A stretch of 64,000 nucleotides of DNA, taken from assembly GCF_000763575.1 (NCBI RefSeq), contig NZ_CP009170.1, positions 645,501-709,500 on the forward strand, read 5' to 3'. Positions 15,878-50,400 of this stretch are shown in pieces. The notes under the pieces are model-generated. The model was not told where the DNA came from, made no database searches, and saw only the letters and a list, made by a program, of their open reading frames with translations. The position numbers were made by a program, and so were the translations under genes. Position 1 is the first letter of the stretch. Each line of letters starts with the position of its first letter. Source of the DNA: Thermoanaerobacter kivui. GTDB lineage: Bacteria; Bacillota; Thermoanaerobacteria; Thermoanaerobacterales; Thermoanaerobacteraceae.

Positions 15878-16807
15878 ATGAAAGTTTTAGTCACAGGCGG
15901 TGCAGGCTTTATAGGTTCACATATAGTAGATTTGCTGATTGAGAATGGATATGAAGTCGTAATAGTGGATAATCTTTCAACAGGAAAAAAAGAGTTTATA
16001 AATAAAAAGGCTATCTTTTATAAAAAAGACATCACAGATGAAGACTTATGTGAAATATTTGAAAAAGAAAAACCTGATTATGTAATACATCAGGCAGCTC
16101 AAATAGATGTGCAGAAATCAATTGATAATCCTGTATTTGACGCGAAGGTAAATGTACTGGGGACAGTAAATTTACTGGAATGCTGCAGAAAAAGTGGTGT
16201 TAAAAAGATTGTATATGCTTCATCGGCAGCAGTATATGGAAACCCTGAGTATCTTCCTATTGATGAAGGACATAAAATAAATCCCATATCTTACTATGGC
16301 ATATCAAAACACACACCAGAGCATTATTTTGAGGTATACAGTCAATTGTATGGATTGAAATATACGATTTTGCGCTATGCAAATGTATATGGAATAAGGC
16401 AGGACTCAAAAGGGGAAGGTGGAGTAATATCTATTTTTATAGATAAAATGCTTAAAGGGGAAAGACCTATTATTTTCGGAGATGGAAACCAAACAAGGGA
16501 TTTTGTTTATGTAAAAGATGTAGCTAAAGCCAATCTTCTGGCATTGGAGAGAGGAGATAATGAGATTGTAAATATAAGCACAGGAAAGCCCACAAGTATA
16601 AATGCTCTTGTTGAGATGATGAATAAAATCATGAATACCTCTTTAGAGCCTATTTATACAGAGCCACGAAAGGGAGATATAATGCATAGTTATCTTGATA
16701 ATAAAAAAGCATTGGAAATACTCAGATGGGAGCCAAAATATAGTTTGGAGGAAGGGTTAAGGGAAACAATTGAGTATTATAAAAGGGAACGTCAAATAAC
16801 GCTATGA
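15878..16807 (+). CDS. NAD-dependent UDP-sugar 4-epimerase (GalE/WbpP-like)
   Basis: A short-chain dehydrogenase-type epimerase of 309 residues, with the NAD motif VTGGAGFIGSH at the start, VDNLSTG, and the catalytic YYGISK (YxxxK). It interconverts UDP-Glc/Gal or the N-acetyl forms; the exact sugar is not certain. GAGGAGA precedes the ATG. Its last ~370 bp are repeated, in decayed form, at 22456-22826, directly beyond the next three genes. This makes the gene's 3' end a likely recombination or insertion point. Confidence 0.92.
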   Translation: MKVLVTGGAGFIGSHIVDLLIENGYEVVIVDNLSTGKKEFINKKAIFYKKDITDEDLCEIFEKEKPDYVIHQAAQIDVQKSIDNPVFDAKVNVLGTVNLLECCRKSGVKKIVYASSAAVYGNPEYLPIDEGHKINPISYYGISKHTPEHYFEVYSQLYGLKYTILRYANVYGIRQDSKGEGGVISIFIDKMLKGERPIIFGDGNQTRDFVYVKDVAKANLLALERGDNEIVNISTGKPTSINALVEMMNKIMNTSLEPIYTEPRKGDIMHSYLDNKKALEILRWEPKYSLEEGLRETIEYYKRERQITL

Positions 16808-16840: not shown

Positions 16841-18685
16841 ATGAAAAAAGGCAAGTCTCCAACAGTAGGTTATTTATTGGCTTTTTTCTTAGGGGGTTTT
16901 GGAGCACATCTTTTTTATTATCAAAAATATCTAAAGGCCGTGATATATCTCTTGATTGTCATATTTTCTGCGGGCAAATTGCTCCCTTTGACCATGGTAT
17001 TGGGTTGGGTAGATATGTTTTTTATTAAGAAATGGCAGAAGGAGTATTCAGAAAGGGAAGAAAAGGTTTCAAAGAGGCCTCCTGAAACATCAACTCAGCT
17101 TCCTTTTACGAAGGAAATCACTCAAGTCAAAAAACTTGAACCTTCTGCAGAAAAAGTTTTACCTCAAAAGGGAGAAGAGAAATTTTACAAGGAAGAAGAT
17201 ATCATACTGCCAGAATATGCTCATCTTGAAACTCCTTTCTACATAAGGAAAGAAATTGATGAACTAAAAAATTCTGTTAAAGCCAAAAAGTCGAGTTCAC
17301 CTGCTATAGAAATTACCTTTTCCACTCGCGATACAGAGTTTATGAAAGATTCAATTAAATACGCTGATATGAAACTCAAGAAGGCGGATTTTGTGCCATT
17401 GAAGGTGTATTGGACTACTTTTAGAGATTTGGACGAAAGGCAGAAGAGGTGGTATTTCTACTGGAGGTATCAGGCGCTAAACGGCAATTATTTGGACACA
17501 GATTTGAGCTACGTAATATTATTTGTTTATGAACTCTTGAACTATACATTTAATCAAAATGCTGCGTTCAACGTTAGCATGATGGTCCGCTTACGGGAGG
17601 CGTACAAGGATAGACTTCCTGATCTGAACAGATATATTGTGCCCTGGATAAGGGATATGTTGGTAGAACTGAATGAAATTGAATTGGCTTATAAATGGGG
17701 ATTAGGGGCAGAACCGTATTCTGGGCTCAATTTTTATCAGATTTTTAAAGAATATCAAGATGATATTAGCAAAATACCTATGGAAGAATGGCGAAAGGTT
17801 CTATATGGATATTCAGAAACTACCTTTTTTAAGGCCAATGCCAAAAAAGTATATGCTGTTTTTGAACAGGCTTTAAAATTATTTCAAAGGATAAATATAG
17901 AAGAGGGATTGGATCTGGAGAAAGCCTGGTTTAAACCAGAAGAAAAAATAGAGACATATCACTTTTTTAGTAGTGCAGTAATAGGTCGAAATGTTCCAAG
18001 CCGTATTATAAAGTACTTACAATATGTGCCTACAGATTATTTCTACAATGAAGTAACAGCTTTATTCCGGCTTTCAGAAAATGTTGCTCGATTGCTCGCT
18101 GGAATTACCAGACAGCTTCAAGTAAACGAAGAATTGTTGCCTCCTGGGTTCAAGGAAGCTTTATTAGAGGAAATAAAGAGATTAGATCTAACAGAGGATG
18201 TAGGACTAAAAAGCCGCTTTTCTCCAGATAAAAAAATAAAGAATCGTTTTTATCAAGTAGCATCGAAAGAAAAGGAAGAGTCGAAACATACTATACCTCA
18301 AAGACCAACCCAAACCACAGGAATAGACGGCGAGGAAATTGAACCTGAACTGGACTTGCCTGAAATAGACATTCCCGAAAATAGGTCTCGAATCCGCTTG
18401 TCTGATGAAGAAGTTGATGTGGAAGGATTTATTTCTTCCTTAACAGAAGAGGAATTCAAATTTATCAGCACGTTTTCTAATGGAAAGAAAAGTATAAATG
18501 AAGCAGAGGAGCAGTTAAAAGACCAAGGTGTTCCTGTAACGATTTTTGTCGAGCAGATAAATGCTAAAGCGGAGGAATATTTAGAAGATGTCTTTATTGA
18601 GCTCATAGGAGAAGAGTATGTGATAAACGAAGAGCTGATAACTGTATGGGAAGAAGTGGAGAGGAGGAATCGGCATGAAAATTAA
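16841..18685 (+). CDS. TM2-domain protein with TerB-N and TerB-C domains
   Basis: The 614-residue protein opens with a TM2-like membrane hairpin (residues ~7-65: LLAFFLGGFGAHLF then a second hydrophobic stretch). A charged linker follows. A TerB-N-type domain then covers roughly residues 175-400 (QKRWYFYWRYQAL, TDLSYVILFVYELLNY), and a C-terminal TerB-C-type domain covers about 510-610 (LSDEEVDVEGFISSLTEEEF). TerB-related domains are linked in the literature to tellurite/chemical stress and phage-defence gene neighbourhoods. The gene overlaps the next one by 11 bp. GGGAGGG precedes the ATG. The membrane anchor suggests that the complex formed with the ATPase and helicase is tethered to the membrane. 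Confidence 0.82.
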   Translation: MKKGKSPTVGYLLAFFLGGFGAHLFYYQKYLKAVIYLLIVIFSAGKLLPLTMVLGWVDMFFIKKWQKEYSEREEKVSKRPPETSTQLPFTKEITQVKKLEPSAEKVLPQKGEEKFYKEEDIILPEYAHLETPFYIRKEIDELKNSVKAKKSSSPAIEITFSTRDTEFMKDSIKYADMKLKKADFVPLKVYWTTFRDLDERQKRWYFYWRYQALNGNYLDTDLSYVILFVYELLNYTFNQNAAFNVSMMVRLREAYKDRLPDLNRYIVPWIRDMLVELNEIELAYKWGLGAEPYSGLNFYQIFKEYQDDISKIPMEEWRKVLYGYSETTFFKANAKKVYAVFEQALKLFQRINIEEGLDLEKAWFKPEEKIETYHFFSSAVIGRNVPSRIIKYLQYVPTDYFYNEVTALFRLSENVARLLAGITRQLQVNEELLPPGFKEALLEEIKRLDLTEDVGLKSRFSPDKKIKNRFYQVASKEKEESKHTIPQRPTQTTGIDGEEIEPELDLPEIDIPENRSRIRLSDEEVDVEGFISSLTEEEFKFISTFSNGKKSINEAEEQLKDQGVPVTIFVEQINAKAEEYLEDVFIELIGEEYVINEELITVWEEVERRNRHEN

Positions 18686-20006
18686 AAGGAGAGATTCAGC
18701 AGATATTTTAAGTGCATTGGCAGGCGGGGTGGTTCCTAAAAGAGGTCTCCAGTATATAATGGTGGGCCGGCAAGCGGAAATGAAACAGATAAGAGAAGAG
18801 TTAAGAGAGATAAAAGAAAATGGAAACTCTATGATTAAGTTTTTTATCGGCGCCTATGGAACTGGGAAAAGTTTTATGCAAAATTTTGTTAGGCAAGTGG
18901 GTCTAGAAGAAGGATTTGTAGTTACCAATGCGGATTTTACTCCCCATAGAAGATTGTATGGAAGCGATAATCAAGCTCTGGCCTTGTACAATGAATTGAT
19001 AAAAAATCTATCAACCAAGTCCGCACCCCAAGGGAACGCCCTGCCCATTATTTTAGATCAGTGGATAATGGGTTTGCAAAAGAAAGTAATGGAAGACCTA
19101 GATTATGAAGATAAAGCTGTTTTGGAGGACAGTGTATTTGTTCAAGCAGTAGAGAAAGAAATTATTAAAGCTGTTTCTCATTTAGATGAGTTAACGGGTG
19201 GTTACGATTTTGCAAAAGTTCTAAGTATTTACTATAAAAGTTTTGTAAAACAAGATAAAGAAAAACAGCGTCAAGCTTTGAGGTGGCTCAGAGGAGAATA
19301 TTTGACCAAAACCGATGCAATGCGGGACTTAGGAATTAGAGAGATTATTGATGATAGCAATTATTATGCTTACTTAAACGTGCTGTGTAAATTTGTGAGG
19401 CAAGCAGGGTATTCAGGCTTGATTATCAATTTAGATGAAGCAGTCAATCTATATAAGATTACTCATAGAGAAGCCAGAGAAAAAAATTATGACTATATCC
19501 TAATGATCTACAATGACATTTTGCAAGGTTCAGTTGAGGGCTTGTATATAACGTTCAGCGGTACCCCTGAGTTTTTAGAGGATGAGCGCCGTGGGCTTTA
19601 CAGCTACCAGGCATTGAAGCGACGTTTGAAGCCAGCGGTGGAAAAGGAAGAATATCAAGATTTAAGGCAGGCAGTAATGAAATTAACTCCCCTTACACCT
19701 GAAGAAACCTTGATCCTATTGATGAATATACGGGATATCCACGCAGCCCATTATGGTTATGAAATAAATGTGACGGACGAAGAAATTCGAAAGTATCTAC
19801 TGTGGACATACAAACGACCGGGGGCTGAAAAGCACATTATTTTAGGAAATGTGGTCAGGCAGTTTATCAGCTTTTTGAATATTAAGATGGAACATCCTGC
19901 TCTGAATTTTGAAGAATTATATATAGGAGAAGAGACTAGAGAAAGCAACTCCTCGGAGAAAGTTATCGATATCCATGAACGTTTTAAAAGGGCTCGGATT
20001 TCATAA
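18675..20006 (+). CDS. BrxD-like P-loop ATPase (DUF2791, BREX ATP-binding family)
   Basis: The 443-residue AAA-type ATPase has Walker A GAYGTGKS at residues 59-66 and Walker B LIINLDEA with Asp254-Glu255. The opening RRDSADILSALAGGVVP and the VGRQAEMKQI segment resemble BrxD-type proteins. In type 2 BREX, BrxD pairs with the BrxHI helicase. Here the same pair occurs without PglZ, PglX, BrxC or a methylase, and with a TerB-domain partner instead. It overlaps the upstream gene and has GAGGAGGAAT before the ATG. A DNA-loading ATPase role is inferred from the family. Confidence 0.85.
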   Translation: MKIKRRDSADILSALAGGVVPKRGLQYIMVGRQAEMKQIREELREIKENGNSMIKFFIGAYGTGKSFMQNFVRQVGLEEGFVVTNADFTPHRRLYGSDNQALALYNELIKNLSTKSAPQGNALPIILDQWIMGLQKKVMEDLDYEDKAVLEDSVFVQAVEKEIIKAVSHLDELTGGYDFAKVLSIYYKSFVKQDKEKQRQALRWLRGEYLTKTDAMRDLGIREIIDDSNYYAYLNVLCKFVRQAGYSGLIINLDEAVNLYKITHREAREKNYDYILMIYNDILQGSVEGLYITFSGTPEFLEDERRGLYSYQALKRRLKPAVEKEEYQDLRQAVMKLTPLTPEETLILLMNIRDIHAAHYGYEINVTDEEIRKYLLWTYKRPGAEKHIILGNVVRQFISFLNIKMEHPALNFEELYIGEETRESNSSEKVIDIHERFKRARIS

Positions 20007-20023
20007 CCTGGGGGTAAATAGAT

Positions 20024-22162
20024 ATGAGCCAAATATTTTATAAGCTATCAGATAAAGTGCAAAAGAAAATATGGGACATGGGATGGAAACATTTTACCCC
20101 TATCCAAGAAAAAGCAATCCCTGTGATTATCGATACAGAAAAAGATGTGGTTTTGTCGTCGGGTACAGCTTCTGGAAAAACTGAGGCTGCATTTTTGCCC
20201 ATCATCAGCAAAATCGAGGAGACAGCTCCTAGCGTTTTGAAGGTTCTTTACGTTTCTCCTCTAAAGGCTTTGATTAATAATCAATTTGAGCGACTTCAAA
20301 AATTATGTGAAGAGATGAATATTCCTGTGCATAGGTGGCATGGAGATGTGAGCCAACACAGTAAGAAAAAATTAATTGATAATCCTGCTGGCATATTACA
20401 GATTACTCCTGAATCCATTGAAAGCTTGTTCATAAACAGAACACGCTCTTTGAAGCAATTATTTCAGGACCTCGAATTTATTGTAATTGACGAACTCCAC
20501 GCTTTTATTGATACAGAAAGAGGAGTTCAGCTCCGATCCCTCTTATCTCGTATTGAGCGATACACCAAAAAGCCAGCCAGGATTATCGGGTTGTCAGCAA
20601 CAATCGATAATTTTTCTCTGGTTAAAAAATGGGTTAATTGCAACAATCCAGATAATGTGGAAATCATTGAAGTAAAGGGATTTGAGAGGGACATCTATTA
20701 CAGTTTAATGCATTTTGAAAAAACTAAAACAGGAAATTATCCTCTGGAATTATACGAAGATATTCTAGAACTGACCCGGAACTATACCTCTTTAATTTTT
20801 TTTAATAGTCGGGCGGCAGTAGAGGAGGCTACAGTAATTTTAAATCGATTAGCTCAAAGGGAGGGACTAGGAGAAAGGTATTATGCCCATCATTCTTCAA
20901 TAGCTAAGGCAGAACGGGAATTTGTGGAGAAGCTAATGGCAGAGTCTACAGGGATTAAAAGCGTCATAGCTACAAGCTCCTTAGAACTAGGGATCGATAT
21001 AGGGGAAATCGATCTGGTAATACAGGTGGATAGTACATTTACAGTTTCCTCTTTAAAGCAGAGATTGGGCAGATCAGGAAGAAAGCAAGGAGAAGGTCAA
21101 TATTTACAGATGTATACCACAGACAAATATGGATTGCTACAATCTATTGCAGTGATGGATCTCTTGTTGCAAGGTTGGACTGAACCCAGCAAAGGCTATC
21201 CGTACCCATATGATATTTTATTTCATCAAATTATTTCTATATGTCACCAACTGAACGGTATCCCTCTTGAGGAACTTGTTTCATTAATAAGTGAAAACGC
21301 TGCATTTCATGAACTGCCGGAATCAGATATCCGTATGTTGATTGAGCACATGATTGACAGGGATTATTTAGAAATACTGACGGATACTCAGGAGTTAATT
21401 GTAGGTCTAGAGGGAGAACGACTGCTAAGGCAAAAAGATTTTTATTCGGTCTTCATGACCCCAGAGGTCTATGAAGTTTTTTACGGAACTAAAAATATAG
21501 GAGAAATCGAAAAAAATTTTCTTTTAAATGAAGGAGACAATATTATTCTTGCTGGGCAGCTGTGGAAAATAGAAGAGATAGATTTTCAGAAAAATAAAGT
21601 ATATGTAAAAAAAGCGGTGGATGGAAAGCCTCCTCGATATTCAGGTGGACCAGGACCATTGCACCCCCGTATTCCTGAGCGCATGCACGAAATATTGTGT
21701 TCAGACTGTAAGTTTGATTTTATTGATGAGAGGGCCCAGACTGTTTTAGAAGAATTAAGGACACCTTATAGATATTTCAATGTTAAGCCAGACGAAAGGA
21801 TTATCTGGAAAACGAAAGAGTGCTTACTATTTGAAACCTTTACTGGCACAAATATTTTTAGAACTTTGATATGGATGTTGCGCTATTATGGAGTTGACGT
21901 GGTGAAAACAGACGGAATCGGACGCATGGAGATTCCCGTTAATGACGAATTTATTGATATTTTACAGGATATTAAGAGAAGAAGATGGTCTTTAGAAAGT
22001 TTATTGCCCTATACTAGGGAACAGGAATTTTTTGTCTCCAAGTATAGCTATTTCCTCCCTCCCAAATTGCAAATAAAAATGCACGGAGCTCATAATGTGG
22101 ATATCGAAGGGGTATTGAAATTTTTAGATAAATTCCGTATCAGGATAATAAGTTTAGAATAA
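20024..22162 (+). CDS. DEAD/DEAH-box helicase, Lhr/BrxHI-like
   Basis: A superfamily 2 helicase of 712 residues. Motif I is SGTASGKT (Lys52), motif II is DELH at 156-159, and motif III is LSATIDN. Motifs V-VI are ATSSLELGIDIGEIDLV and RLGRSGRKQGEGQ. An Lhr-type accessory region follows the two RecA domains. It is the last gene of the three-gene insert, 17 bp after the ATPase, with GGGGGT before the ATG. The BrxD-BrxHI pairing known from type 2 BREX supports action on DNA together with the ATPase; the substrate is unknown. Confidence 0.88.
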   Translation: MSQIFYKLSDKVQKKIWDMGWKHFTPIQEKAIPVIIDTEKDVVLSSGTASGKTEAAFLPIISKIEETAPSVLKVLYVSPLKALINNQFERLQKLCEEMNIPVHRWHGDVSQHSKKKLIDNPAGILQITPESIESLFINRTRSLKQLFQDLEFIVIDELHAFIDTERGVQLRSLLSRIERYTKKPARIIGLSATIDNFSLVKKWVNCNNPDNVEIIEVKGFERDIYYSLMHFEKTKTGNYPLELYEDILELTRNYTSLIFFNSRAAVEEATVILNRLAQREGLGERYYAHHSSIAKAEREFVEKLMAESTGIKSVIATSSLELGIDIGEIDLVIQVDSTFTVSSLKQRLGRSGRKQGEGQYLQMYTTDKYGLLQSIAVMDLLLQGWTEPSKGYPYPYDILFHQIISICHQLNGIPLEELVSLISENAAFHELPESDIRMLIEHMIDRDYLEILTDTQELIVGLEGERLLRQKDFYSVFMTPEVYEVFYGTKNIGEIEKNFLLNEGDNIILAGQLWKIEEIDFQKNKVYVKKAVDGKPPRYSGGPGPLHPRIPERMHEILCSDCKFDFIDERAQTVLEELRTPYRYFNVKPDERIIWKTKECLLFETFTGTNIFRTLIWMLRYYGVDVVKTDGIGRMEIPVNDEFIDILQDIKRRRWSLESLLPYTREQEFFVSKYSYFLPPKLQIKMHGAHNVDIEGVLKFLDKFRIRIISLE

Positions 22163-22455: not shown

Positions 22456-22826
22456 GTGAGATTTATTTTTTTGTAGATAAGATACTTAAAGATGAAATGT
22501 CTATTATTTTTGAAGAAGGGAAACAAACGTGAGATTTTGTTTATGTAAAAGATGTAGCTAAAGCGAATTTTCTGGCATTGGAGAGAGGAGATAATGAGAT
22601 TGTAAATATAAGCACAGGAAAACCCACAAGTATAAATGCTCTTGTTGAGATGATGAATAAAATTATGAATACCTTTTTAGAGCCTATTTATACAGAGCCA
22701 CGAAAAGGAGATATAATGCATAGTTATCTTGATAATAAAAAAGCATTGGATGTGCTTGGATGGAAGCCTGAGTATAGTTTGGGAGATGGATTGAGAGAGA
22801 CAATTGAGTATTACAGAATAAAATGA
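22456..22826 (+). pseudogene. Decayed second copy of the UDP-sugar epimerase 3' end
   Basis: This stretch repeats the end of the epimerase gene at 15878-16807. Over 22575-22750 only about four bases differ from 16540-16715. Further upstream the match weakens and contains a stop (near 22530). The final 80 bases diverge to their own ending, LGWKPEYSLGDGLRETIEYY. It has no ribosome site and no 5' half, so it is not a gene. It forms a direct repeat with the intact copy, bracketing the TerB/ATPase/helicase insert. Confidence 0.85.
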
Positions 22827-22869
22827 GCTGAAAGTGAAGTTGCTGTCACGGAGGAAAAGTGGAGGGATG

Positions 22870-22986
22870 ATGCATATTGTAATAATTGTAGATGCAGAGG
22901 ATGCACTTTTAATTTGCTCAAAAGATAAGGCGCAGAATGTGAAAGAGATATTGAAGGAGTTGAAAGAGAAAGCAGAGTACTTATGA
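22870..22986 (+). pseudogene. manC: C-terminal fragment of a ManC/AlgA-type mannose-1-P guanylyltransferase
   Basis: A 38-codon frame reads VIIVDAEDALLICSKDKAQ and then VKEILKELKEKAEYL. This is the usual last segment of mannose-1-phosphate guanylyltransferases. The catalytic N-terminal domain is absent. It runs directly into a wzz fragment in another frame, showing a deletion junction. It looks like a remnant of an older polysaccharide cluster. Confidence 0.65.
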
Positions 22987-23085
22987 GGCTACTACTGTTT
23001 TAAATGTCACTAATGTGACACCGGCGACAGGGTTTTTAGGTTCCAATACTACTGGAATACTACCTGGCAAAGATTCAGCTGTACT
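22979..23085 (+). pseudogene. Internal fragment of a Wzz-type chain-length determinant gene
   Basis: The frame reads TYEATTVLNVTNVTPATGF, LGSNTTGILPGKDS. It corresponds closely to residues ~43-80 of the intact Wzz-like protein encoded at 62511-63458 (TYEATTTLSVTDVTPETGF). Only about 35 codons remain, with no start and no downstream part. It is fused out of frame to the manC end. Confidence 0.75.
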
Positions 23086-23402
23086 ATTCAAACACCCGTT
23101 TTTTATTTTTCTTGATATATGCCGAAATATTTTTAATATTTGAGTTGGTTTTTAGGAGACGAAATGGTAAAATGTTGTGATGTATCAAATATTTGCTTAA
23201 TCGAGAAACCTAACTTAACTTTTTTTATAAAAGATGGTTGTTTTTATTACTTGTATAAGACTTAATGTAAGTTATATAATATAATCAAAGGAGACATGGA
23301 ATTGAAATGTTGTGCAAAGTAATATACCCAAAGCAATTTTTTAGTGTTAAAATCTATATATATCTTTGTCTGTTTTAAATTTTTTCTCTGGAGGTATTAA
23401 AA
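23086..23402. other. Intergenic leader region of the GerMN lipoprotein gene
   Basis: No gene is seen. Two promoter-like pairs lie here: TTGGTT (23145-23150) with TAAAAT (23168-23173) at 17 bp, and TTGTAT (23251-23256) with TATAAT (23275-23280) at 18 bp. The second is the likelier promoter for the lipoprotein. An AAAGGAGA at 23288 precedes only an 8-codon frame, which I do not regard as a gene. Confidence 0.5.
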
Positions 23403-25539: not shown

Positions 25540-26694
25540 ATGTTAATACAATGTACAAAAAAGTTGTTGGATGTGATAGAGAGAAAACCCGTTACGTATG
25601 AAGAAGAAAATTTGTTATTTTCTTGGCATGCAAATTTGATCACCTTAAATCGAAGAAAGACTGTAGTCCTTGTAAATGATAAAAACAGGTATGTAGTTGT
25701 TTTATATGGACTTAAAGCAAGGGACTTTAAAAGGCTTGATGAAATTATTTTAAATGCTATTCGTCTGACGTTATTAGATGAATGTATTGATGAAGATATT
25801 GTAGATGAGTATTTAAGACAGTCTGGAGAAATTGTATATGGGAAAACGAAAAATAGTAGTTATGTAGGGAAATTAAATACAGCTTGTAATATAGTACCCT
25901 ATTATGAAGAATTGCTTTTGGACAATACAATTTATCAAACCTTTGTGAGCAAAATAGCGAGTCGCTATTGGGTAGGTAAACAGGAGGGGGGACGTTATAT
26001 ATCTCCAGGCAAAGAAATGCTTAAAGATTTAGAAATTTTTGCAGGCAGACCCATTTTTAAATGCAAGGCAGTAGAACTAAAAGTGACACTTCAAATGGAG
26101 AATCATAATATTTGGCGCAGGCTTATCGTTCCTTTAAATACTACATTTACACAGTTTCACAAAGTACTTCAGGCTGCTTTTGGCTGGTTAGATTATCATC
26201 TTCACGAATTTTTCATTTACGGAGATGAGATGCAGGATATCTCATTTATTAATCATCCTGCTTATAATAAAGCGGGGTATAAACCAGTTGTAAATTTGGT
26301 CAGCTATGATGAAGACTTTGATTATCTAAGGGAAGATGGTATAGAGAGGAAATTAGAAAAAGGGATAAGATTATCGGAGTATATTCCAAAATACAAAAGG
26401 CTGCAATATGTTTATGATTTTGGAGACAATTGGCGGCATTATATCGAAGTAGAGAGAGTGATAGAGGATTATGATAAAAATTATGCTATTTGTGTTGATG
26501 GAGAAGGAAACGCCCCGCCTGAAGATGTAGGCGGTGAATATGGCTATGATAAATTTTTGGAAATAATTTCTGATAAAAATAATCCAGAGTATGAGAGTAC
26601 ACTGGTTTGGGGCGAGTATCAAGGATATAAGGATTTTAATATTGATGAAGTAAATAAAAATATTAAATTTGTGTATGATTCTTTTTTACTATGA
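25540..26694 (+). CDS. Plasmid pRiA4b ORF-3-family protein
   Basis: The 384-residue protein has a poorly recognisable N-terminal half (~1-175). Its C-terminal half matches the pRiA4b ORF-3 family: LKVTLQMENHNIWRRLIVP, FTQFHKVLQAAFGWLDYHLHEF, YVYDFGDNWRHYIEVE and CVDGEGNAPPEDVGG. The family is widespread on mobile and accessory DNA and has no established biochemical role. The gene stands alone, convergent with the Uma2-type gene. Confidence 0.88.
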   Translation: MLIQCTKKLLDVIERKPVTYEEENLLFSWHANLITLNRRKTVVLVNDKNRYVVVLYGLKARDFKRLDEIILNAIRLTLLDECIDEDIVDEYLRQSGEIVYGKTKNSSYVGKLNTACNIVPYYEELLLDNTIYQTFVSKIASRYWVGKQEGGRYISPGKEMLKDLEIFAGRPIFKCKAVELKVTLQMENHNIWRRLIVPLNTTFTQFHKVLQAAFGWLDYHLHEFFIYGDEMQDISFINHPAYNKAGYKPVVNLVSYDEDFDYLREDGIERKLEKGIRLSEYIPKYKRLQYVYDFGDNWRHYIEVERVIEDYDKNYAICVDGEGNAPPEDVGGEYGYDKFLEIISDKNNPEYESTLVWGEYQGYKDFNIDEVNKNIKFVYDSFLL

Positions 26695-28830: not shown

Positions 28831-31221
28831 ATGAAGATTGAGGATTTAAAAGGAAAATTGTTTGAGGACAATTATATTAACATTGCTATTGAGGAGTATT
28901 TAAAATTCAAGGAAACTAATGTTTATGATGAAGCATACAAAAGACAGATTTTAAGTGAACTGAATAATTATTTAAAAGATAAAAGGATTACTTCTGAAAA
29001 TATTATTGAAATAGTCGAATATTTTCAGAAGAAAAATCCGCCAAGAGGTAGTTTTGTTCACTGGAGTAATTTGGATGACCTATATAAATATGCTAAAGAA
29101 AGACCTGTTGAAGTAGCTGAGTTGTTAAATTATTTATATGAGGAATCGGTAGAGGTCGGCGATAGAATAGAAAGATTTTTAAATACGGCTAAAAGTTATA
29201 ATTTGTCAATTAAATTGGGTACTTCGCTTTTTGGATATTTGTTAGCAGGATTTAATATGAGAAAATATCCCCTATTTAAAGATAGCATATTTAAGGATTT
29301 TCTGGATTCTTTTGGTATTAAAGAAATTTTTGGTGATATACCTACTAAATATTCTGCCTACTACAATCTTTGCCTTATTTTACTTGATTATTTTAAAGAA
29401 AAGGACTACATAAAAAATCCTGATATGATGGATGTCCAAGATTTTATTTTTTGTATGTCTCCGAAAGACGGTTATAAAGATTTGTATGTTAAGGTTAGTG
29501 TAAGGTATCTTTATGAACATGCTAAAATACTTGATTCTTTTAACAGGGATGATAAAGTTTTTATAGATTATATAAATAAACTGGACAGAGATTATATAGG
29601 GGAAATGTATGATAGGTATAGAGATACAGAAAAAGTAAATGAGATAAGGTTTGAAGTTTGCAAAAAAGTAATAAACGATGGGAGTATAAGTATTGAAGAT
29701 TTGGAAGAAATAAAGAGTAAAGTTTCAAGCAAACATAAAAAAGACATATTAAAGTCATGGAATAATTTTAAAATATTATTTCCATTTTATTATGAAAAAT
29801 ACAAAAAAAAGATAAATATAGAGCTTAGGAAAATCTATGATAGTGTTAAATCTATTGAAACTTTTAGAGGATATGACTTCAAAGAAAACGAATATATTTG
29901 TGACTTTTATGGTCCACAAAATTTTGGTGGTACAAGATCTTGGTTTGCCATATATTCCAAGGATAAAGATACTCACAAGGATTCGGCTCAATTGTTTTTT
30001 AGCCTTGAAAACAAAGAGATTTCATATGGTCTGTATATTGGTTCTAATCTTAGAAAGATTGATGAAGTGATAAAAGATGATATTGATAGTGTTAATGATG
30101 TAGAGGAGTTTACGTACAACAAAATGGAAAAGAAATTTGTTGAAGTTTTTGACAGGTTTAAGGAAATAAATGAATCTACTCAAGTAAAAGCGGATAATGG
30201 TGACAATGTTGCTAAAGACGATGGTGAAAATATCTCAGAAGATGTGATAAGCTTGGGGGTTGATTTTAATAAAGAAATCAAGATCAGAAAGTTATTTTTT
30301 GAGGATGCCGATATCTTGGCAAAGCGAATATCTACTGCCTTGAAATCAGGTAAACACATAATTCTTGTAGGACCTCCTGGCACAGGTAAGTCTAAGTTGG
30401 CTAAGGAAATATGTGAAAGCTATGAAGTAGATTATGAAATGGTGACAGCTATGTCTGATTGGTCTACCTATGACACTATTGGGGGTTATAGGCCTGAGGT
30501 AGATGGAACTTTGTATTTTGATGAAGGTATATTTTTGCGCCTTTTTAAGGATAAGAAAAATAATGCCCCTACAAATAAGTGGCTTATTATAGATGAAATC
30601 AATAGGGCTGATATTGATAAGGCTTTTGGTTCTCTTTTTTCTGCTCTGACAGGAGATAAAGTAACGTTAAGCTTTAAATCAAAATCAGGAAATAATATAG
30701 TTTTAAGGCCACAGCAAGATAACGAAAAAATAGAGCCAAATGATTATGAATATATAATCCCTAAGGATTTTCGAATTATTGGAACGATAAACACTTATGA
30801 CAAAACTTCTTTATATGAAATGAGCTATGCGTTTATGAGGAGGTTTGCTTTTATTCCTGTAGGAGTGCCCCAAAATATTGATAAAGACCTTATAGAAAGA
30901 TATTTGAATATATGGGGCATAGAGGATAGGGTTATTAACAACGTGGATTTAAAAGAAGGTTTGGCTGAAGTTTGGAGTATAATAAATAAATACCGAAAAA
31001 TTGGTCCTGCTATTATTAAAGACATTGCCAAGTATGTGAGCGAAGAGGGGGATTACACTTCAGCTATAATACTTTACGTGTTGCCTCAATTTGAGGGGCT
31101 TATGGTCAATGAGATAAAAAAATTTGCCGAGGAACTGTATGGATGTAGTATTAAAGATTTTATAAATATAGAGCAAAGGAAAAGACTAGACAGTTTCATC
31201 GAGGACTTTTTCGGTGTATAA
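28831..31221 (+). CDS. mcrB: McrB-like AAA+ GTPase/ATPase of a type IV restriction system
   Basis: The 796-residue protein has a long N-terminal region (about 1-470) that I do not recognise and that probably recognises the target DNA. An AAA+ motor of McrB type follows. Walker A is GPPGTGKS (514-521), Walker B is LIIDEINRAD with Asp588-Glu589, and the GTINTYDK segment matches the McrB NTxD-type sensor. It overlaps or abuts the McrC-like nuclease gene. McrBC systems cut modified DNA. AGGGGGAC precedes the ATG. Confidence 0.88.
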   Translation: MKIEDLKGKLFEDNYINIAIEEYLKFKETNVYDEAYKRQILSELNNYLKDKRITSENIIEIVEYFQKKNPPRGSFVHWSNLDDLYKYAKERPVEVAELLNYLYEESVEVGDRIERFLNTAKSYNLSIKLGTSLFGYLLAGFNMRKYPLFKDSIFKDFLDSFGIKEIFGDIPTKYSAYYNLCLILLDYFKEKDYIKNPDMMDVQDFIFCMSPKDGYKDLYVKVSVRYLYEHAKILDSFNRDDKVFIDYINKLDRDYIGEMYDRYRDTEKVNEIRFEVCKKVINDGSISIEDLEEIKSKVSSKHKKDILKSWNNFKILFPFYYEKYKKKINIELRKIYDSVKSIETFRGYDFKENEYICDFYGPQNFGGTRSWFAIYSKDKDTHKDSAQLFFSLENKEISYGLYIGSNLRKIDEVIKDDIDSVNDVEEFTYNKMEKKFVEVFDRFKEINESTQVKADNGDNVAKDDGENISEDVISLGVDFNKEIKIRKLFFEDADILAKRISTALKSGKHIILVGPPGTGKSKLAKEICESYEVDYEMVTAMSDWSTYDTIGGYRPEVDGTLYFDEGIFLRLFKDKKNNAPTNKWLIIDEINRADIDKAFGSLFSALTGDKVTLSFKSKSGNNIVLRPQQDNEKIEPNDYEYIIPKDFRIIGTINTYDKTSLYEMSYAFMRRFAFIPVGVPQNIDKDLIERYLNIWGIEDRVINNVDLKEGLAEVWSIINKYRKIGPAIIKDIAKYVSEEGDYTSAIILYVLPQFEGLMVNEIKKFAEELYGCSIKDFINIEQRKRLDSFIEDFFGV

Positions 31222-31234
31222 GGGGATGTTAGGG

Positions 31235-32548
31235 GTGAAAACCAGCAAGGAAGAATTACTGGATGCCATAAGTGCGGATTTGATTGCATATTTGAAATCC
31301 GGCGTATTTTCTCCTCGGCCTTTTCTCAATAAAATAAATTTAAACATAGACAGAATTGAAGATTTAATCAAGATACATTTTTTGCTGGATGAGAAAGTGA
31401 AGGATTATATTTTAAATCTACCTCAAATGATTAGAAGACTGACAGTTTCTACCGATTTATATCAAGAGACTGGCCGCGACCGGATTAAAGGTGCCATAGA
31501 TTGGTCTAAAACTATGTTTCAAAGACTAAATACCTACTATAAGGATAAAACTCTTTTTAGCTACAGAGAAAGGGACAAGCTTTATAACACCAAAGAAAAC
31601 ATAGTTTTAAAAAAATTTATAGAAGTACTGTACAATATTATTTTTGTAGAAGTTAAAATGGAACGATTTGTAAACTATGAGTGGTATAGAGAAGGTTATG
31701 AAATAAATCGGATTATAAAGGAAATATACGAAAAGAATATTTATCTTAGCAGAATAAATATTGAAGGGATAAAAGTAAGCCATAGAATGATTGAAGATGT
31801 TGCTAAAAATAGAAATAAACTTTACAAAGAGGCAGCGGAATTGTTGAGGAAATACAAGAGGTTAGTAAATTTTGTAGACGAAGGAGAGGTCATAGACCTA
31901 TTCCGAAATACTTTTGTAGAAATTGTAAATGAAAATGTGCTCTTTGAGCTTTATTGGGTCATTAGGCTTATAAAGGACAATACCTCCAATGCCAAAATGC
32001 ATATTGTGGACGGTGGCAATAATAAAGTAGCTTCTTGGGAACAGGGTAATTTTTTATATAACGTTTACCACAATAGTACCGGCTCCGGAAGACTAATATT
32101 CCGAATAGACTTTGAAGAAGTAAAAAATATTGAAAATGAGTATTTTAGAAGAAGTATTGAGGTTGCCAAGAATACCTCTAGAATAGCAGCAAAACTTTTT
32201 GAGGACAACAGCGCTTTTTTATCTGACAGTTTATGGAGCGGTCGGCCTGATATTCTTGTGGAAGTTGTCGACAGAAATACTGGTAAGATAAAAAAGATTA
32301 TCATTGGGGAAGTAAAATATACTACAGACAGGGATTACATGATACAGGGATTAAAAGAGCTTTTGGAGTATGTTTATTATATAAAGGAAAAGTCAATAAA
32401 AGGCATGTACGTTTTTGACAATCCACAAAGTGAAATAGAGGTAGGAGGTATTTTGTTTGTTGATGATATTAAGTTTTTATTCTTAGAAGGTGAAATTGTA
32501 AATGTTTATAAAACAAGTGATAAAAACATATTATTGCAGTCTATATGA
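31235..32548 (+). CDS. mcrC: McrC-like PD-(D/E)XK nuclease subunit
   Basis: This protein of about 437 residues has a C-terminal nuclease core with SGRPDILVE (Asp339) and IIIGEVKYT (Glu359, Lys361), the D...E-x-K pattern of McrC/LlaJI-type subunits. The N-terminal part resembles DUF2357-type McrC relatives (FLLDEKVKDYIL, YRERDKLYNTKENIVLKKF). In-frame GTG 31214 and ATG 31226 exist. GTG 31235 is best spaced from AGGGG at 31221-31225 and would place the start just after the McrB stop. Together with mcrB it should form a complete modification-dependent restriction system. Confidence 0.86.
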   Translation: MKTSKEELLDAISADLIAYLKSGVFSPRPFLNKINLNIDRIEDLIKIHFLLDEKVKDYILNLPQMIRRLTVSTDLYQETGRDRIKGAIDWSKTMFQRLNTYYKDKTLFSYRERDKLYNTKENIVLKKFIEVLYNIIFVEVKMERFVNYEWYREGYEINRIIKEIYEKNIYLSRINIEGIKVSHRMIEDVAKNRNKLYKEAAELLRKYKRLVNFVDEGEVIDLFRNTFVEIVNENVLFELYWVIRLIKDNTSNAKMHIVDGGNNKVASWEQGNFLYNVYHNSTGSGRLIFRIDFEEVKNIENEYFRRSIEVAKNTSRIAAKLFEDNSAFLSDSLWSGRPDILVEVVDRNTGKIKKIIIGEVKYTTDRDYMIQGLKELLEYVYYIKEKSIKGMYVFDNPQSEIEVGGILFVDDIKFLFLEGEIVNVYKTSDKNILLQSI

Positions 32549-44832: not shown

Positions 44833-46320
44833 ATGGAAGATAAACTTGATTTGAATGTGATAAAACCGATTGAAGAGGTAAAGTATTTGTCTGCGGAAAA
44901 TGCTTCGCGATATCGCCTCATCATGAGGTATTTTTATGAACAGTACCAGAAATTTAAATATTGGCTGTACAAAGAGGATGTATATGAATATGTAAGTCAA
45001 TTTGATGTGTTTTCCGACTATACAATGGAAAAATGTGAGCAGGACTTAAAAGCACTTACTGAATGGAAAAACCTTATTGCGACACAAGATACCAGTAAAG
45101 CTTCTACGATTGACGAATTTAAAAACAAAAAATTCAGGTATCAGCTGAGTCCATATTCTATTGAGATAGAAAGAATGACCATAAGGCTGGAAAGCATCGT
45201 TGGTTATGGTGGGTCACTACAGCCGTCTTTATTTGAAAGGATTTACCGCAATTTAATAAAGATAAATGAAATGGCTAAAAAAGAGGATTTACAGGAAATA
45301 AACAGGTGGTGGGAAGACCTCAATACCGACTTTGAAAATATATATCACAATGCGACAGATTACATTGCAAGTCTTCAAAGCTCTAACGCTGATGAACTTA
45401 TGAAGTCAGAGCAGTTTATAATTTACAAAGACAAACTTATAGAATATTTAAGAGATTTTATAAAAGACCTTCAGAGGTTTTCTGTTGCCATAGAGAGCTT
45501 TTTGAAAAAGGTGAGTCCGCAGATTGTCAATTCCGTTGTAGATAAGTTATGCCAATATGAAATGAGTATCCCAAGAATTGACAGGGTTTTAAATGAAGAG
45601 GAAGTAAAAGAAGATTTGATGGATAAGTGGAATAACATATCTTTTTGGTTTACAGGTCATAATTTTGAAGACAGCGAGGCAGTAAGGCTTCTTAATATAT
45701 CAAATGAAATAATCAGAAAAATAACAATGTATGCGGCGAGAATAGCTGAAAACAGAATGAAAGCTGCCAGCAGAAAGAATGAATATATTGCTCTTTCTAA
45801 AATGTTTGCAAAAGCAGGTAGTATAAAAGAAGCACACCTTTTGTCTGCGGCGGTTTTCGGTTGCTTTTACACAAGGCACATAAAAGGTGATTTTGAAAGA
45901 AAGACAGAAAGTGTAAACCAGAGCGTGTGGGAAGAACCGCCCTTTAAAGTGATTATAAAGCCAAAAACAAGGAGCTACAGTAATTATGTTAAGACAAATG
46001 CGATTATTGATAAAAGTGCTGACAAGACGGAGATGCTGATGGACTATCTCAATCAGAAAAATATAGAAGATGAAATAATAGCAAGTTGCATTGTTGGCAA
46101 TAGAATAAGGATAAAGGATTTACCTGTTGTAAAACCTTTTGTGAGGGCAACGATACTTAAATGGATAGGAAAAGCGATGGCAAGAAATAGTTTTACAGGA
46201 AAGACAGAAGATGGAAGAACATACAGGCTTCATATGCCAAAGAATGGTGAGAGGGCAATACTAAAATGCACAGATGGTAATCTTGATATGCCTGATATTG
46301 TAATTGAGTTTGTTGATTGA
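44833..46320 (+). CDS. jetA: Wadjet JetA, kleisin-like subunit (TIGR02677/DUF2397)
   Basis: The 495-residue protein opens with VKYLSAENASRYRLIMRYFYEQYQ, the recognisable start of the TIGR02677 family. It is largely helical, as expected for a MukF/kleisin-like subunit that bridges the SMC heads. It leads the jetABCD operon and ends 10 bp before jetB. AAGGTGA precedes the ATG. Wadjet complexes recognise and cleave circular DNA such as plasmids by loop extrusion. Type II assignment rests on the DUF2397/2398/2399 family set as I recall it. Confidence 0.9.
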   Translation: MEDKLDLNVIKPIEEVKYLSAENASRYRLIMRYFYEQYQKFKYWLYKEDVYEYVSQFDVFSDYTMEKCEQDLKALTEWKNLIATQDTSKASTIDEFKNKKFRYQLSPYSIEIERMTIRLESIVGYGGSLQPSLFERIYRNLIKINEMAKKEDLQEINRWWEDLNTDFENIYHNATDYIASLQSSNADELMKSEQFIIYKDKLIEYLRDFIKDLQRFSVAIESFLKKVSPQIVNSVVDKLCQYEMSIPRIDRVLNEEEVKEDLMDKWNNISFWFTGHNFEDSEAVRLLNISNEIIRKITMYAARIAENRMKAASRKNEYIALSKMFAKAGSIKEAHLLSAAVFGCFYTRHIKGDFERKTESVNQSVWEEPPFKVIIKPKTRSYSNYVKTNAIIDKSADKTEMLMDYLNQKNIEDEIIASCIVGNRIRIKDLPVVKPFVRATILKWIGKAMARNSFTGKTEDGRTYRLHMPKNGERAILKCTDGNLDMPDIVIEFVD

Positions 46321-46330
46321 AGGTGAAAAA

Positions 46331-47482
46331 ATGGAAGAACTTCAGATGCTTCTTGAAAATTTTTGGATACTGAGAGAGGATAGAGAAAATTTCAACAAAA
46401 TAAGAGATGCGGAGAATAAAATAAAACCTTTTGTTGAAGAAAAATTAGGATATAGATTGATTATAAACCCATATATTATTAAGTTAGAAAAAGTGCCGTC
46501 AGATGTTGAAGAGTGGATGAGGATAGATGCATTTCAAACGCCTATGGATTATGCATTTTTGTGTTTGCTCTTAGCTTTTTTGGAGGATAAAGGACCAGAA
46601 GACCAGTTTGTGTTGTCTAATATAACGGAATACATAGAGGCACAGTATGATGGACCTGATAAAGTAGATTGGACGCTTTTTCAGCACAGAAAGTCACTTG
46701 TGCGGGTGCTCAATTTTGCTGTAGATATTGGCATAATTAAAATAGATGATGGTGACCATGAGAGGTTTTCAGAAAGTGAAGATACTGAAGTTCTTTACGA
46801 AAACACAGGTATTTCAAGGTATTTTTTGAGGTCTTTTAACAGAGAAATTACAGAAGACATGAAGATTGAGGATTTTTTGCAGGAGGATTTAAATCTTTCA
46901 AACCCCAAAGATGCGGTTATACAGAGAAGACACAGGGTGTACCGAAAACTTATTCTTTCACCTTCTGTGTATAGTGAAGGACCTGATGACCAAGACTTCA
47001 TGTATATAAAAAATTACAGAAATACTATAGCGAAAGATTTAGAGGAGTATCTTGATGCAAAACTTCACCTCCACAAAACTTCTGCTTTTGTCCTCTTTAA
47101 TGACAACAAATATTTAAAGTCCTATTTTCCCGACAAAAACAAAAACATATCTGATATAATGCTGCAGGTAAATAAAATTATAAGAGAAATGATTGAAGAT
47201 GGAAAACTCGCCTATAATCCTGATGATACTATAGATATAACTGAAGCAGAATTTATAAATATTATTTTGAAAGTAAAGGAAAGATTTAGTGATGGTTGGT
47301 ATAAGTCTTACAGGGAGATGAGTGAAAAGCAGCTTATAGAAGAGGTCATTGAAAACATGGAAAGCTTTAAAATGATAAAAAGAGTTGAGGAATTGCATTC
47401 TATTAAAATATTGCCTATGGCGGCAAAGTTAATTGGGGAATATCCTCCAGATTTTGAAAAAGGAGAAGGTGCAGATGAGTGA
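46331..47482 (+). CDS. jetB: Wadjet JetB, kite-like subunit (TIGR02678/DUF2398)
   Basis: This protein of about 383 residues begins with LENFWILREDRENFNKIRDAE and contains LEDKGPEDQFVLSNITEYIEAQY and the HRKSLVRVLNFAVDIGIIKI winged-helix-like segment typical of TIGR02678. It is the MukE/kite-like partner of JetA. ATG 46331 follows GAAGGTG; a TTG at 46304 overlapping jetA is less likely. The stop overlaps the jetC start (ATGAGTGA), showing coupled translation. Confidence 0.9.
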   Translation: MEELQMLLENFWILREDRENFNKIRDAENKIKPFVEEKLGYRLIINPYIIKLEKVPSDVEEWMRIDAFQTPMDYAFLCLLLAFLEDKGPEDQFVLSNITEYIEAQYDGPDKVDWTLFQHRKSLVRVLNFAVDIGIIKIDDGDHERFSESEDTEVLYENTGISRYFLRSFNREITEDMKIEDFLQEDLNLSNPKDAVIQRRHRVYRKLILSPSVYSEGPDDQDFMYIKNYRNTIAKDLEEYLDAKLHLHKTSAFVLFNDNKYLKSYFPDKNKNISDIMLQVNKIIREMIEDGKLAYNPDDTIDITEAEFINIILKVKERFSDGWYKSYREMSEKQLIEEVIENMESFKMIKRVEELHSIKILPMAAKLIGEYPPDFEKGEGADE

Positions 47483-50400
47483 AAAATTAGCTGAAAGATG
47501 GATGATTAACAGGATTGGGCTTCTTAATTTTTGGTATTATGATGATGAAATATTTGAGTTTGCAGATGGAAGGCTTCTTTTAAGAGGTGCTAATGGTTCT
47601 GGAAAGTCAGTGACAATGCAGAGTTTCATACCTTTAGTATTAGATGGCAACAAAAGTCCTGAAAGACTCGATCCCTTTGGCTCAAAGGCGAGAAAGCTTG
47701 AGGACTATCTTCTTGGGGAAGAAGAGGTAAGTGGGCTTGATGAAAGAACTGGCTATCTTTTCATGGAATTTAAAAAAGAGAAAAAAGACAGCTACATTAC
47801 AATAGGCATGGGACTAAAGGCGAAAAGGCATCAAAATATGGACTTTTGGGGCTTTGTAATACTTGACGGCAGGCGTATAGGTATCGACTTCTTTTTATAC
47901 AAAATGGAAATAGGCGATGACGGCAAAAGAGTAAAAGTCCCACTTACCAAAAAAGAACTTAAGAATAGAATAGGTGAAGGCGGAGAAGTAGTTGAAAGCC
48001 AAAAAGAGTACATGGAAATGGTCAATAAATACATTTTTGGCTTTAGTTCTATTGAGGAATACGACGAGCTCATAAAACTGCTGATACAGCTTAGAAGTCC
48101 AAAGCTTTCCAAAGACTTCAGGCCTACTGTGATATATGAAATTATGAAGGCTTCACTGCCTTCACTCACAGATGATGATTTGAGGCCCCTTTCAGAAACT
48201 ATAGAAAACATGGACCAGATTAAGATGCACCTTGATGTTCTTTACAGGAATATGGCTGCAGTAAAAAAGCTTAAAAACGAGTACGACAACTACAACAAAT
48301 ACATTCTTTATGAAAAGGCTGGGGATTTAGTAAAGGCATACAGCGATTTATACGCATCAAAAAAAGAATACGATAATTTAACTAAAGATATTGAAAATTA
48401 CAGAAGTACAATAGCAAACTTAGGAAATGACATCATTTCTCTTGAAAGTGAAAGAGAAGCTTTAAAGAAAAAGGAAGAACAGCTTTCAAGTGGTGATGCT
48501 AAAAGAACCCAAAAGGAATTATTAGAAGAAGAGGATCGATATAAGCAGTATTTGGAGGATAAGTCTAAAAAAGAAGAAGAACTCCGGAATAAACAAGATA
48601 AATATTATGGTTTAGAAAGAAAGATAAAAAACACTGAGGAACAAAAATACAAACTGGATAAAGAACTACAGGATAAATTAGAGGATATATCTTCAATTGC
48701 CCAGGATATAGATTTCATGGAACATGAGTTTTCTGTAAGTGAACTTAAAAAAGTGTATGGAAAAGAATTTGATTTTACTTATTGGAAAAATGAATTAAAA
48801 AAGCATAAAGATAAAATAAAGCGTGCCATCAATGCATTGAGAGAAGAAATAGAAGCAAATAAAAGGTATGATGCCGCACTTAAAGAGCAGGAAAGGCTTA
48901 AAAAAGAAAGAGAAGACAGGGCTAAAAAGCTTAATGAGGCAGAAAGGCTTTTTGACGAACAAAAAAGAGAATACGTTGAAAGAGTTTATAGTTGGTCACA
49001 GGGCAATGCAGAGCTTAAGCTTTTAAGTAGCCAATTGGAAGGCTTAAGCCGTGTCATACTGGTGTATGGAGAGGATAAAGGATTTGACGATATTTTGGCT
49101 TTTGTGAGAAAACCCTATGAGGAAATACTAAATGGAATTCAGCAAGAAATTTTAAGATTAGAAAATCAAAGAGAGATAAAAGAAAATCAGCTTCATGAGG
49201 AAGAAAAGTTATTGGAGGAATGGAAAAACAAAAAAGACCCTGAGCCTGAAAGAGATGAACAAGTCATAAACAACAGAAAAAGGCTTAAAGAAGCTGGAAT
49301 TCCTTACATTCCTCTTTACATGGCGATTGATTTTAAAGAGGATGTGGATGAAGATACAAGAGGAAATATAGAAGCTGCGATAGAAGACATGGGGCTTTTG
49401 GACGCTCTTATCGTGCCAAAGGAATATTTTGAAAAAGCTCTTCAAATGGACAGCAATATGGCGGATAAATATGTTATGCCTGGAAGCTTTAATATGATGC
49501 TAAATGTATCTCAATATTTTAAAGTAGTTGACAATGAAGAAGGAGTTTCACCAGAAGATATTTCAGATGCTTTAAGCAATATATTTGTATCAGAAGAAGG
49601 CGGGACAACCTATATCGATTCAAATGGCGCATATGGAATAGGAGTAATAAAAGGGAAAGCACGGGATAAAGTTAGATCAAAGTACATCGGGAGTGAGTCT
49701 AGAAAGCGCTACAGAGAAGAGCTTATTAAATCTATACAAGAAGAAATACAGGCTATAAAAACTGAAATATCTGCAATCGATGAGGAAATAAATGCAAAAA
49801 AATTAAGGATACAGAGGCTGGATTACGAATATTCGGCATTTCCCGGGAAAGAAGACATTGAAGAAGCGTATAGATATTTAAAAACGGCAAAGGCTGATTA
49901 CGAATACACCTCTCATAAACTGGATGAACAGCTTTTCACAGTTAAAAACTGTTTTGAGGACCTTCAGAAAAAGAAAGCTGTTGTAAGAGAATTGACATCT
50001 GGCATAAACATACATCCAGATATTGATACCTATTCTTCTGCCTATGAGTATGCGGAAGAATACGCTTCAGGGCTTAATGAAGTAGAAATACTATACAATA
50101 AATATGTTTTGCAAATTTCAAACGAAGAAATGTTATTGCAGCAAAAACAAGATTTAGAATACGATATTGATAACTTAAAGTACGAAATAGACGTACTGGA
50201 AAACAAAATACAGAGTTCTGTTAAGAAAATTGAGATGCTAAAAGAGACATTAAAAGAACTTGGACTTGAAGAAATTGAAAAAGAACTGGAGATTTGCCTA
50301 AAAAGGCTGGAGGAAATACCTAAAGAGATTACAAATAAATCAGCCGAAAAAGCAAAACTTGAGGAGAGGCTACAGAGAAGCTTAAAAGACCTTTTAAACA

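What the first reader, a model, noticed from the sequence alone, without database searches (positions are those of the whole stretch)
16841..22162. Stand-alone TM2-TerB / BrxD-like / BrxHI-like trio without other BREX genes
The sequence shows three tightly packed, translationally linked genes. They are a membrane-anchored TerB-N/TerB-C protein, a DUF2791 ATPase with intact Walker motifs, and a complete Lhr-type SF2 helicase. BrxD and BrxHI are known as partners in type 2 BREX, but here there is no PglZ, PglX, BrxC, methylase or nuclease. TerB domains have been linked to stress and phage-defence neighbourhoods. A membrane-tethered ATPase-helicase machine acting on incoming DNA is a plausible inference and seems poorly described.
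Basis: partly seen in the sequence, partly recalled or inferred. Interest (0 to 1): 0.8.

Follow-up and report, generated by a model that had tools for sequence, protein, structure and literature searches.

The report
Shango anti-phage operon with membrane anchor
The three genes are a complete copy of Shango (SngA-SngB-SngC), an already described bacterial anti-phage defence system, here with an SngA protein held in the membrane by a TM2 hairpin; a membrane anchor turns out to be common across this family.

Summary
Three intact, tightly packed genes lie at 16841-22162: TM2 + TerB_N + TerB_C, a BrxC/D-type ATPase, and an SF2 helicase with an Lhr winged helix. The reading as a poorly described stand-alone BREX-like trio is not right. 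PADLOC assigns them to SngA, SngB and SngC, the three genes of Shango. The ATPase scores 515 bits as SngB against 181 as BrxD; the helicase 719 as SngC against 461 as BrxHI. No PglZ exists anywhere in the genome. Shango is published and protects E. coli and Pseudomonas. In 398 genomes of the phylum, the families occur together in order A-B-C in 23 genomes. In the genus (Thermoanaerobacter) 3 of 10 genomes carry it, always beside the same sugar-epimerase gene; related genomes lack it there. So it is a patchy, mobile defence operon, not housekeeping. One point appears not to have been described in what I could read: most SngA proteins outside one Bacillota clade carry an N-terminal membrane anchor (TM2, other hairpins, one helix), and two carry wall-associated domains. 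Here the anchor is under purifying selection. Membrane-tethered helicase loading onto incoming DNA is the best-supported but untested mechanism.

The parts
16841..18685 (+). SngA: TM2 membrane hairpin (aa 4-41 by Pfam, hydrophobic segments 8-26 and 37-55), linker, TerB_N (157-289), TerB_C (510-600); no PF05099 TerB hit in the middle
   Evidence: (SngA 135 bits over model positions 52-525 of 528); dN/dS of the TM2 part 0.04-0.10, linker 0.46
18675..20006 (+). SngB: BrxC/D-type (ORC/Cdc6-like) AAA+ ATPase; Walker A GAYGTGKS, Walker B INLDEA
   Evidence: SngB 515 bits, BrxD 181; PF10923 474 bits
20024..22162 (+). SngC: SF2 helicase with Lhr-type winged helix; motifs I, II, III and VI intact
   Evidence: (SngC 719 bits, BrxHI 461)
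15878..16807 (+). NAD-dependent sugar-nucleotide epimerase gene; left border of the variable site at which Shango sits in three Thermoanaerobacter genomes
22461..22822 (+). decayed second copy of the epimerase 3' end (90% over 300 nt): right border of the island
22835..22990 (+). remnant of manC (mannose-1-phosphate guanylyltransferase): its start joined to its last ~40 codons, about 960 bp deleted between window 22877 and 22878
   Evidence: against the intact, Shango-free site L037

Best explanation
The three genes are a complete, probably functional Shango (SngABC) anti-phage system. Most likely mechanism, with its status. (1) SngA sits in the cytoplasmic membrane by its TM2 hairpin with the TerB domains inside (predicted). 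(2) SngA recruits SngB, an ORC/Cdc6-like AAA+ ATPase (family membership shown; recruitment inferred). (3) SngB assembles on DNA and loads or activates the SF2 helicase SngC, as proposed for the homologous BrxD-BrxHI pair (inferred by homology). (4) SngC translocates on phage DNA near its entry site, displaces replication or repair proteins, and exposes the DNA to host or accessory nucleases, since none of the three has a recognised nuclease domain (inferred). The infection fails without a dedicated modification system. Probability of the identity 0.95; of the mechanism in steps 2-4 about 0.35. The confidence below refers to the identity as a functional-type Shango defence system.
For: PADLOC assigns all three proteins to SngA, SngB and SngC in one operon in the published order. 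The catalytic motifs are invariant. Purifying selection acts on all three genes among three Thermoanaerobacter species (dN/dS 0.11-0.24). In 398 genomes of the phylum SngB (strong hits) and SngA were each found in the same 23 genomes and SngC in 22 of these at the cut-off used; the 23rd has SngC in pieces. Distribution is patchy: 3 of 10 in the genus, about 6% of sampled phylum genomes. The same site is free of Shango in four congeners. It occurs on 692 plasmid records, in E. coli (689 of 5,426 genomes with some match, 437 with most of it) and on viral/proviral contigs. Shango gave 10-100-fold protection against many phages when cloned into PAO1, and about 10-fold against two phages for the E. 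coli system (PMC10250203). BrxD-BrxHI is described as a tightly linked dyad in which the ATPase may load the helicase (PMC12839542).
Against: No Shango from the window's clade has been tested in any host as far as I found: its SngB is 38-41% identical to those of other clades and its SngA 16-22% identical to the ones on viral contigs. The window's SngA scores only 135 bits and lacks a recognisable central TerB domain, which the Klebsiella-type SngA has. No experiment shows SngB loading SngC, SngA in the membrane, or DNA as the target. The structure models were too weak to test it: SngA pLDDT 37; SngB pLDDT 59 with no significant PDB match. Members of the Paenibacillus-type clade lack the anchor, so the membrane is not needed by every Shango.
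Confidence: 0.9

Rival explanations
1. A stand-alone or decayed BREX type 2 module (BrxD-BrxHI) that acquired a TerB partner and still works in a BREX-like way.
For: SngB and BrxD, and SngC and BrxHI, are clear homologues; SngC is 32% identical to a BrxHI-type helicase over its full length. A true BrxD-BrxHI pair beside a PglZ-domain gene and a weakly BrxC-like gene is present in a related phylum member (L115).
Against: All three proteins score far better as Shango; SngB rows and the two BrxD rows separate with full support (100/99). No PglZ anywhere in the genome. The A-B-C trio is the fixed unit in 23 phylum genomes and in plasmid records from Bacteroidota, Pseudomonadota and archaea.
Confidence: 0.05
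2. An abortive-infection system: SngB-SngC sense phage DNA or replication intermediates, and membrane-anchored SngA is the effector that damages the membrane or arrests the cell.
For: SngA is the only membrane component; other helicase-containing systems such as Hachiman are damage sensors coupled to an effector (PMC12278908). TerB function is unknown.
Against: The TM2 hairpin looks like an anchor; Shango of the Paenibacillus-type clade has no N-terminal transmembrane segment; [quoted passage not shown]
Confidence: 0.25
3. A housekeeping DNA repair or envelope-stress operon (metal or tellurite stress) rather than defence.
For: TerB domains are also found in tellurite/stress operons; in some lineages SngABC is followed by Mre11-Rad50-type or PD-(D/E)XK-UvrD genes.
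Against: Patchy presence, variable genomic site, plasmid and proviral carriage, neighbouring defence systems, and direct anti-phage activity of homologues in two hosts.
Confidence: 0.05

Closest known systems
Shango (SngA-SngB-SngC), Millman et al. 2022 and Johnson et al. 2023 (PMC10250203)
   Same: Same three families, same order, same translational packing, stand-alone, no other genes needed; PADLOC SngA/SngB/SngC are the best hits. Enterobacterial members also have an N-terminal membrane helix.
   Different: Distinct, untested clade: SngB 38-41% identical to other clades; SngA anchored by a TM2 hairpin instead of a single helix and without a Pfam-detectable central TerB domain.
BREX type 2 BrxD-BrxHI dyad (PMC12839542)
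   Same: Homologous ATPase-helicase pair, adjacent and probably a loader-helicase pair.
   Different: BREX type 2 has PglZ, BrxC, PglX and PglW as well; PglZ is absent from the genome, and BrxD/BrxHI models score much lower than SngB/SngC models.
Hachiman (HamAB) and other SF2-helicase defence systems (PMC12278908)
   Same: SF2 helicase at the core; that paper places SngC, BrxHI, DruE and DpdJ in one possible clade of defence helicases.
   Different: Hachiman has a dedicated nuclease effector HamA; Shango has no recognised one.
Zorya (comparison from my own knowledge, not tested here)
   Same: Membrane component combined with a DNA-acting helicase.
   Different: Zorya uses a proton-driven MotAB-like motor and a nuclease; no sequence relation was looked for or seen here.

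Membership tests
Shango | TerB-domain protein SngA | tested here: met
   PADLOC SngA 1.3e-39 over 90% of the model; TerB_N and TerB_C above Pfam cut-offs
Shango | ATPase SngB | tested here: met
   PADLOC SngB 6.2e-155, 515 bits, best hit; Walker motifs invariant
Shango | DEAD/DEAH helicase SngC | tested here: met
   PADLOC SngC 2.2e-216, 719 bits, best hit; SF2 motifs invariant
Shango | three genes adjacent, order A-B-C, stand-alone | tested here: met
Shango | anti-phage activity | not testable with these tools
   shown for PA14 Shango in PAO1 and for an E. coli homologue (PMC10250203), not for this clade
BREX type 2 | PglZ | tested here: not met
   no PF08665 hit in the whole genome, controls rang
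BREX type 2 | BrxD equivalog score | tested here: not met
   NF033438 181.9 bits against cut-off 350
BREX type 2 | BrxHI as best helicase family | tested here: not met
   BrxHI 461 bits against SngC 719
BREX type 2 | BrxC, PglX and PglW | tested here: inconclusive
   none beside the trio and no other BrxC/D-family (PF10923) gene in the genome; PglX and PglW models were not run genome-wide

The most novel reading that the evidence does not exclude
Shango is at root an envelope-tethered defence. SngA is a transmembrane platform, in some lineages with extracytoplasmic wall-associated domains (PG_binding_1 in Azospirillum, SH3_3 in Persicobacter), that places an ORC/Cdc6-like loader and a helicase at the site where phage DNA enters; unrelated anchors are used in different lineages, and the anchor is missing in one Bacillota clade.
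Probability: 0.3. Interest if true: 0.6.

Novelty: new member of a known kind. Interest (0 to 1): 0.3.

Why it matters
It removes a supposed new BREX-like system by naming it. It also turns a vague idea (membrane-tethered machine) into a testable statement about a published system whose mechanism is unknown: 22 of 40 SngA proteins scored carry an N-terminal membrane segment, with only two changes of state needed on the SngB tree, and in this genus the anchor is the most constrained of the three parts of SngA compared. A truncation of the anchor in E. coli or Pseudomonas Shango would test directly whether defence happens at the membrane. The thermophilic Thermoanaerobacter version may also give stable proteins for structural work.

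Tried and rejected
BREX type 2 fragment: rejected by scores, tree and absence of PglZ. TM2 anchor as a unique new variant: rejected, because anchors of other types occur in most Shango clades including the Klebsiella/E. coli one. An obligatory fourth gene (Mre11-Rad50-type nuclease pair, seen after SngC in Thermoanaerobacter sp. A7A and in two haloarchaeal plasmids): rejected as general, since it is absent from the window genome (only a distant SbcD-like gene elsewhere) and from nearly all other loci. Structure prediction of SngA and SngB: too weak to use, Foldseek not significant. PDB by sequence: no relative of SngB; SngC matches Lhr- and Ski2-like helicases such as 5v9x. Viral contigs: six Shango loci with a broad SngB profile, none with the window-clade profile. 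Published phages: no match. The 2012 paper on Ter-dependent systems could not be read here, and Millman et al. 2022 was not read either, so earlier mention of the TM2-TerB architecture cannot be excluded.

Full report
What is there. Three ORFs on the + strand at 16841-18685, 18675-20006 and 20024-22162: the first two overlap by 11 nt, the second and third are separated by 17 nt, all with strong ribosome-binding sites. Pfam gives TM2 + TerB_N + TerB_C; BrxC_BrxD; and DEAD + Helicase_C + WH_Lhr.

What it is. PADLOC-DB identifies the proteins as SngA (135 bits), SngB (515; BrxD only 181) and SngC (719; BrxHI 461). These are the three components of Shango, an anti-phage system named in Millman et al. 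2022 and tested in Pseudomonas by Johnson et al. 2023 (PMC10250203): a TerB-like protein, an ATPase and a helicase, giving 10-100-fold protection against many phages in PAO1. NCBIfam's BrxD equivalog is missed by a wide margin (182 against 350 bits), the whole genome has no PglZ, and SngB sequences form a group separate from two BrxD rows with full support. A genuine BrxD-BrxHI pair, next to a PglZ-domain gene and a weakly BrxC-like gene, was found in a related genome (L115); its helicase is 32% identical to the window's SngC.

Conservation of the trio. Among 398 genomes drawn from the phylum, SngB (above 350 bits) occurs in 23, SngA in the same 23, and SngC in 22 of them, adjacent and in the order A-B-C. 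The 23rd (G357, L082) has SngC in two pieces. About 6% of sampled genomes carry it, and 3 of 10 in the genus. The close relatives found by name are Thermoanaerobacter sp. A7A and sp. Bu09. SngB homologues are also on 692 plasmid records, mostly Klebsiella and Salmonella (trio annotated in the regions read). The Klebsiella-type operon has some match in 689 of 5,426 complete E. coli genomes and a match over at least 80% of its length in 437. Six viral or proviral contigs carry Shango genes. No published phage record matched.

Site. In three Thermoanaerobacter genomes SngABC follows the same sugar-nucleotide epimerase gene of a polysaccharide cluster, directly in two and after an inserted HD/RT cassette in the third. 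In four congeners the epimerase is followed by other genes: manC directly in one (L037), rmlBADC and then manC in two (L035, L036), other genes in the fourth (L034). In the window, Shango lies between the intact epimerase and a decayed second copy of that gene's 3' end, followed by manC with about 960 bp deleted. This looks like acquisition by recombination between epimerase copies; that step is inferred.

Function retained. Among window, A7A and Bu09 copies dN/dS is 0.17-0.24 (SngA), 0.15-0.22 (SngB) and 0.11-0.16 (SngC). Walker A and B of SngB and motifs I, II, III and VI of SngC are invariant across 16 and 14 diverse members.

Membrane anchor. The window's SngA starts with a TM2 hairpin whose 70 codons are more constrained than the linker and the rest of the gene (dN/dS 0.04-0.10; linker 0.46; rest 0.18). 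A survey of 40 SngA proteins shows that an anchor is not unique to this clade. TM2 recurs in the related Bacillota rows and in haloarchaeal SngA; Klebsiella, Salmonella and E. coli SngA have a single N-terminal helix; other lineages have unrelated hairpins. The Paenibacillus-type clade has none, with one exception (L077). Counted on the SngB tree, two changes explain the pattern. The transmembrane calls come from a hydropathy scan, not a trained predictor, and the longest ORF was used in each case. Two SngA proteins carry domains associated with the cell wall in front of the anchor: PG_binding_1 in Azospirillum (L094) and SH3_3 followed by TM2 in Persicobacter (L091). Their hydrophobic segments fit these domains outside and TerB inside. 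The PADLOC SngA match begins after the anchor in the anchored members scanned, so annotation by that model does not show it. I found no paper in the library that mentions it, but key papers are not held.

How it probably works. For BrxD-BrxHI, an ORC/Cdc6-like AAA+ ATPase and a Ski2/Lhr-like helicase, loading of the helicase by the ATPase has been proposed (PMC12839542). By homology SngB would load SngC. None of the three proteins has a recognised nuclease domain, so destruction of phage DNA would need host nucleases or accessory ones; nuclease genes do follow SngC in a few lineages: Mre11-Rad50-type in A7A and two haloarchaeal plasmids, with NurA and a DUF87 gene in one of them, and PD-(D/E)XK plus UvrD helicase in Sulfitobacter. 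Anchoring by SngA would put the machine where DNA enters. Shown: families, motifs, linkage, selection. Predicted: the anchor. Inferred: contacts, loading, target, fate of the DNA.

Verdict. Real, functional-looking, and already a named system; the window adds an untested clade and draws attention to the membrane anchor.

Noticed in passing
window 44833-52929: Complete type II Wadjet system (JetA 44833-46320, JetB 46304-47482, JetC 47433-51641, JetD 51634-52929), best PADLOC scores 489-1687 bits.
   Followed up: partly
window 28831-32548: 796-aa AAA_5 (McrB-like) ATPase overlapping a 444-aa protein without any Pfam hit: candidate McrBC-like type IV restriction pair with an unrecognised second subunit.
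   Followed up: no
window 15878-16807 and 22461-23360; L034, L035, L036, L037, L022, L023: The 3' end of a polysaccharide-cluster epimerase gene is a variable site in Thermoanaerobacter: Shango, rmlBADC, manC or other genes follow it, with partial duplicate copies of the epimerase.
   Followed up: partly
L023 3526-5366 and L116 13265-15128: A two-gene pair, HD-domain hydrolase (about 445 aa, 37% identical between the two loci) plus a small partner (168-176 aa, 24% identical, no Pfam hit), sits next to Shango in one genome and next to BrxD-BrxHI in another: possible unnamed defence module.
   Followed up: partly
L023 5547-6041: Truncated UG13a-type defence reverse transcriptase (DRT) just upstream of SngA in Thermoanaerobacter sp. 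Bu09.
   Followed up: no
L022 11716-15083, L092 8736-11236, L096 12736-19224: SngABC directly followed by Mre11-like and Rad50/SMC-like genes in a bacterium and in two haloarchaeal plasmids (plus NurA and a DUF87 gene in L096); the A7A pair is accessory, not conserved in the genus.
   Followed up: partly
L094 5571-8990, L091 2334-4991: SngA proteins with extracytoplasmic-type wall domains (PG_binding_1; SH3_3 followed by TM2) before the TerB part. RefSeq annotates a shorter L094 gene that leaves the PG_binding part out.
   Followed up: partly
L114 1-13738; L110 6066-7982: Shango beside phage structural-looking genes (L114), and a Shango whose SngA N-terminus is replaced by a resolvase-like sequence (L110), on viral contigs.
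   Followed up: no
L115 6293-16374: BrxD-BrxHI next to a divergent PglZ-domain protein (823 aa) and a 1381-aa protein with only weak BrxC similarity: possibly a divergent BREX-like type.
   Followed up: no
window 25540-26694: PRiA4_ORF3 + DUF6933 fusion with a PADLOC candidate-defence hit (PDC-S63, 69 bits); homologous sequence in congeners.
   Followed up: no
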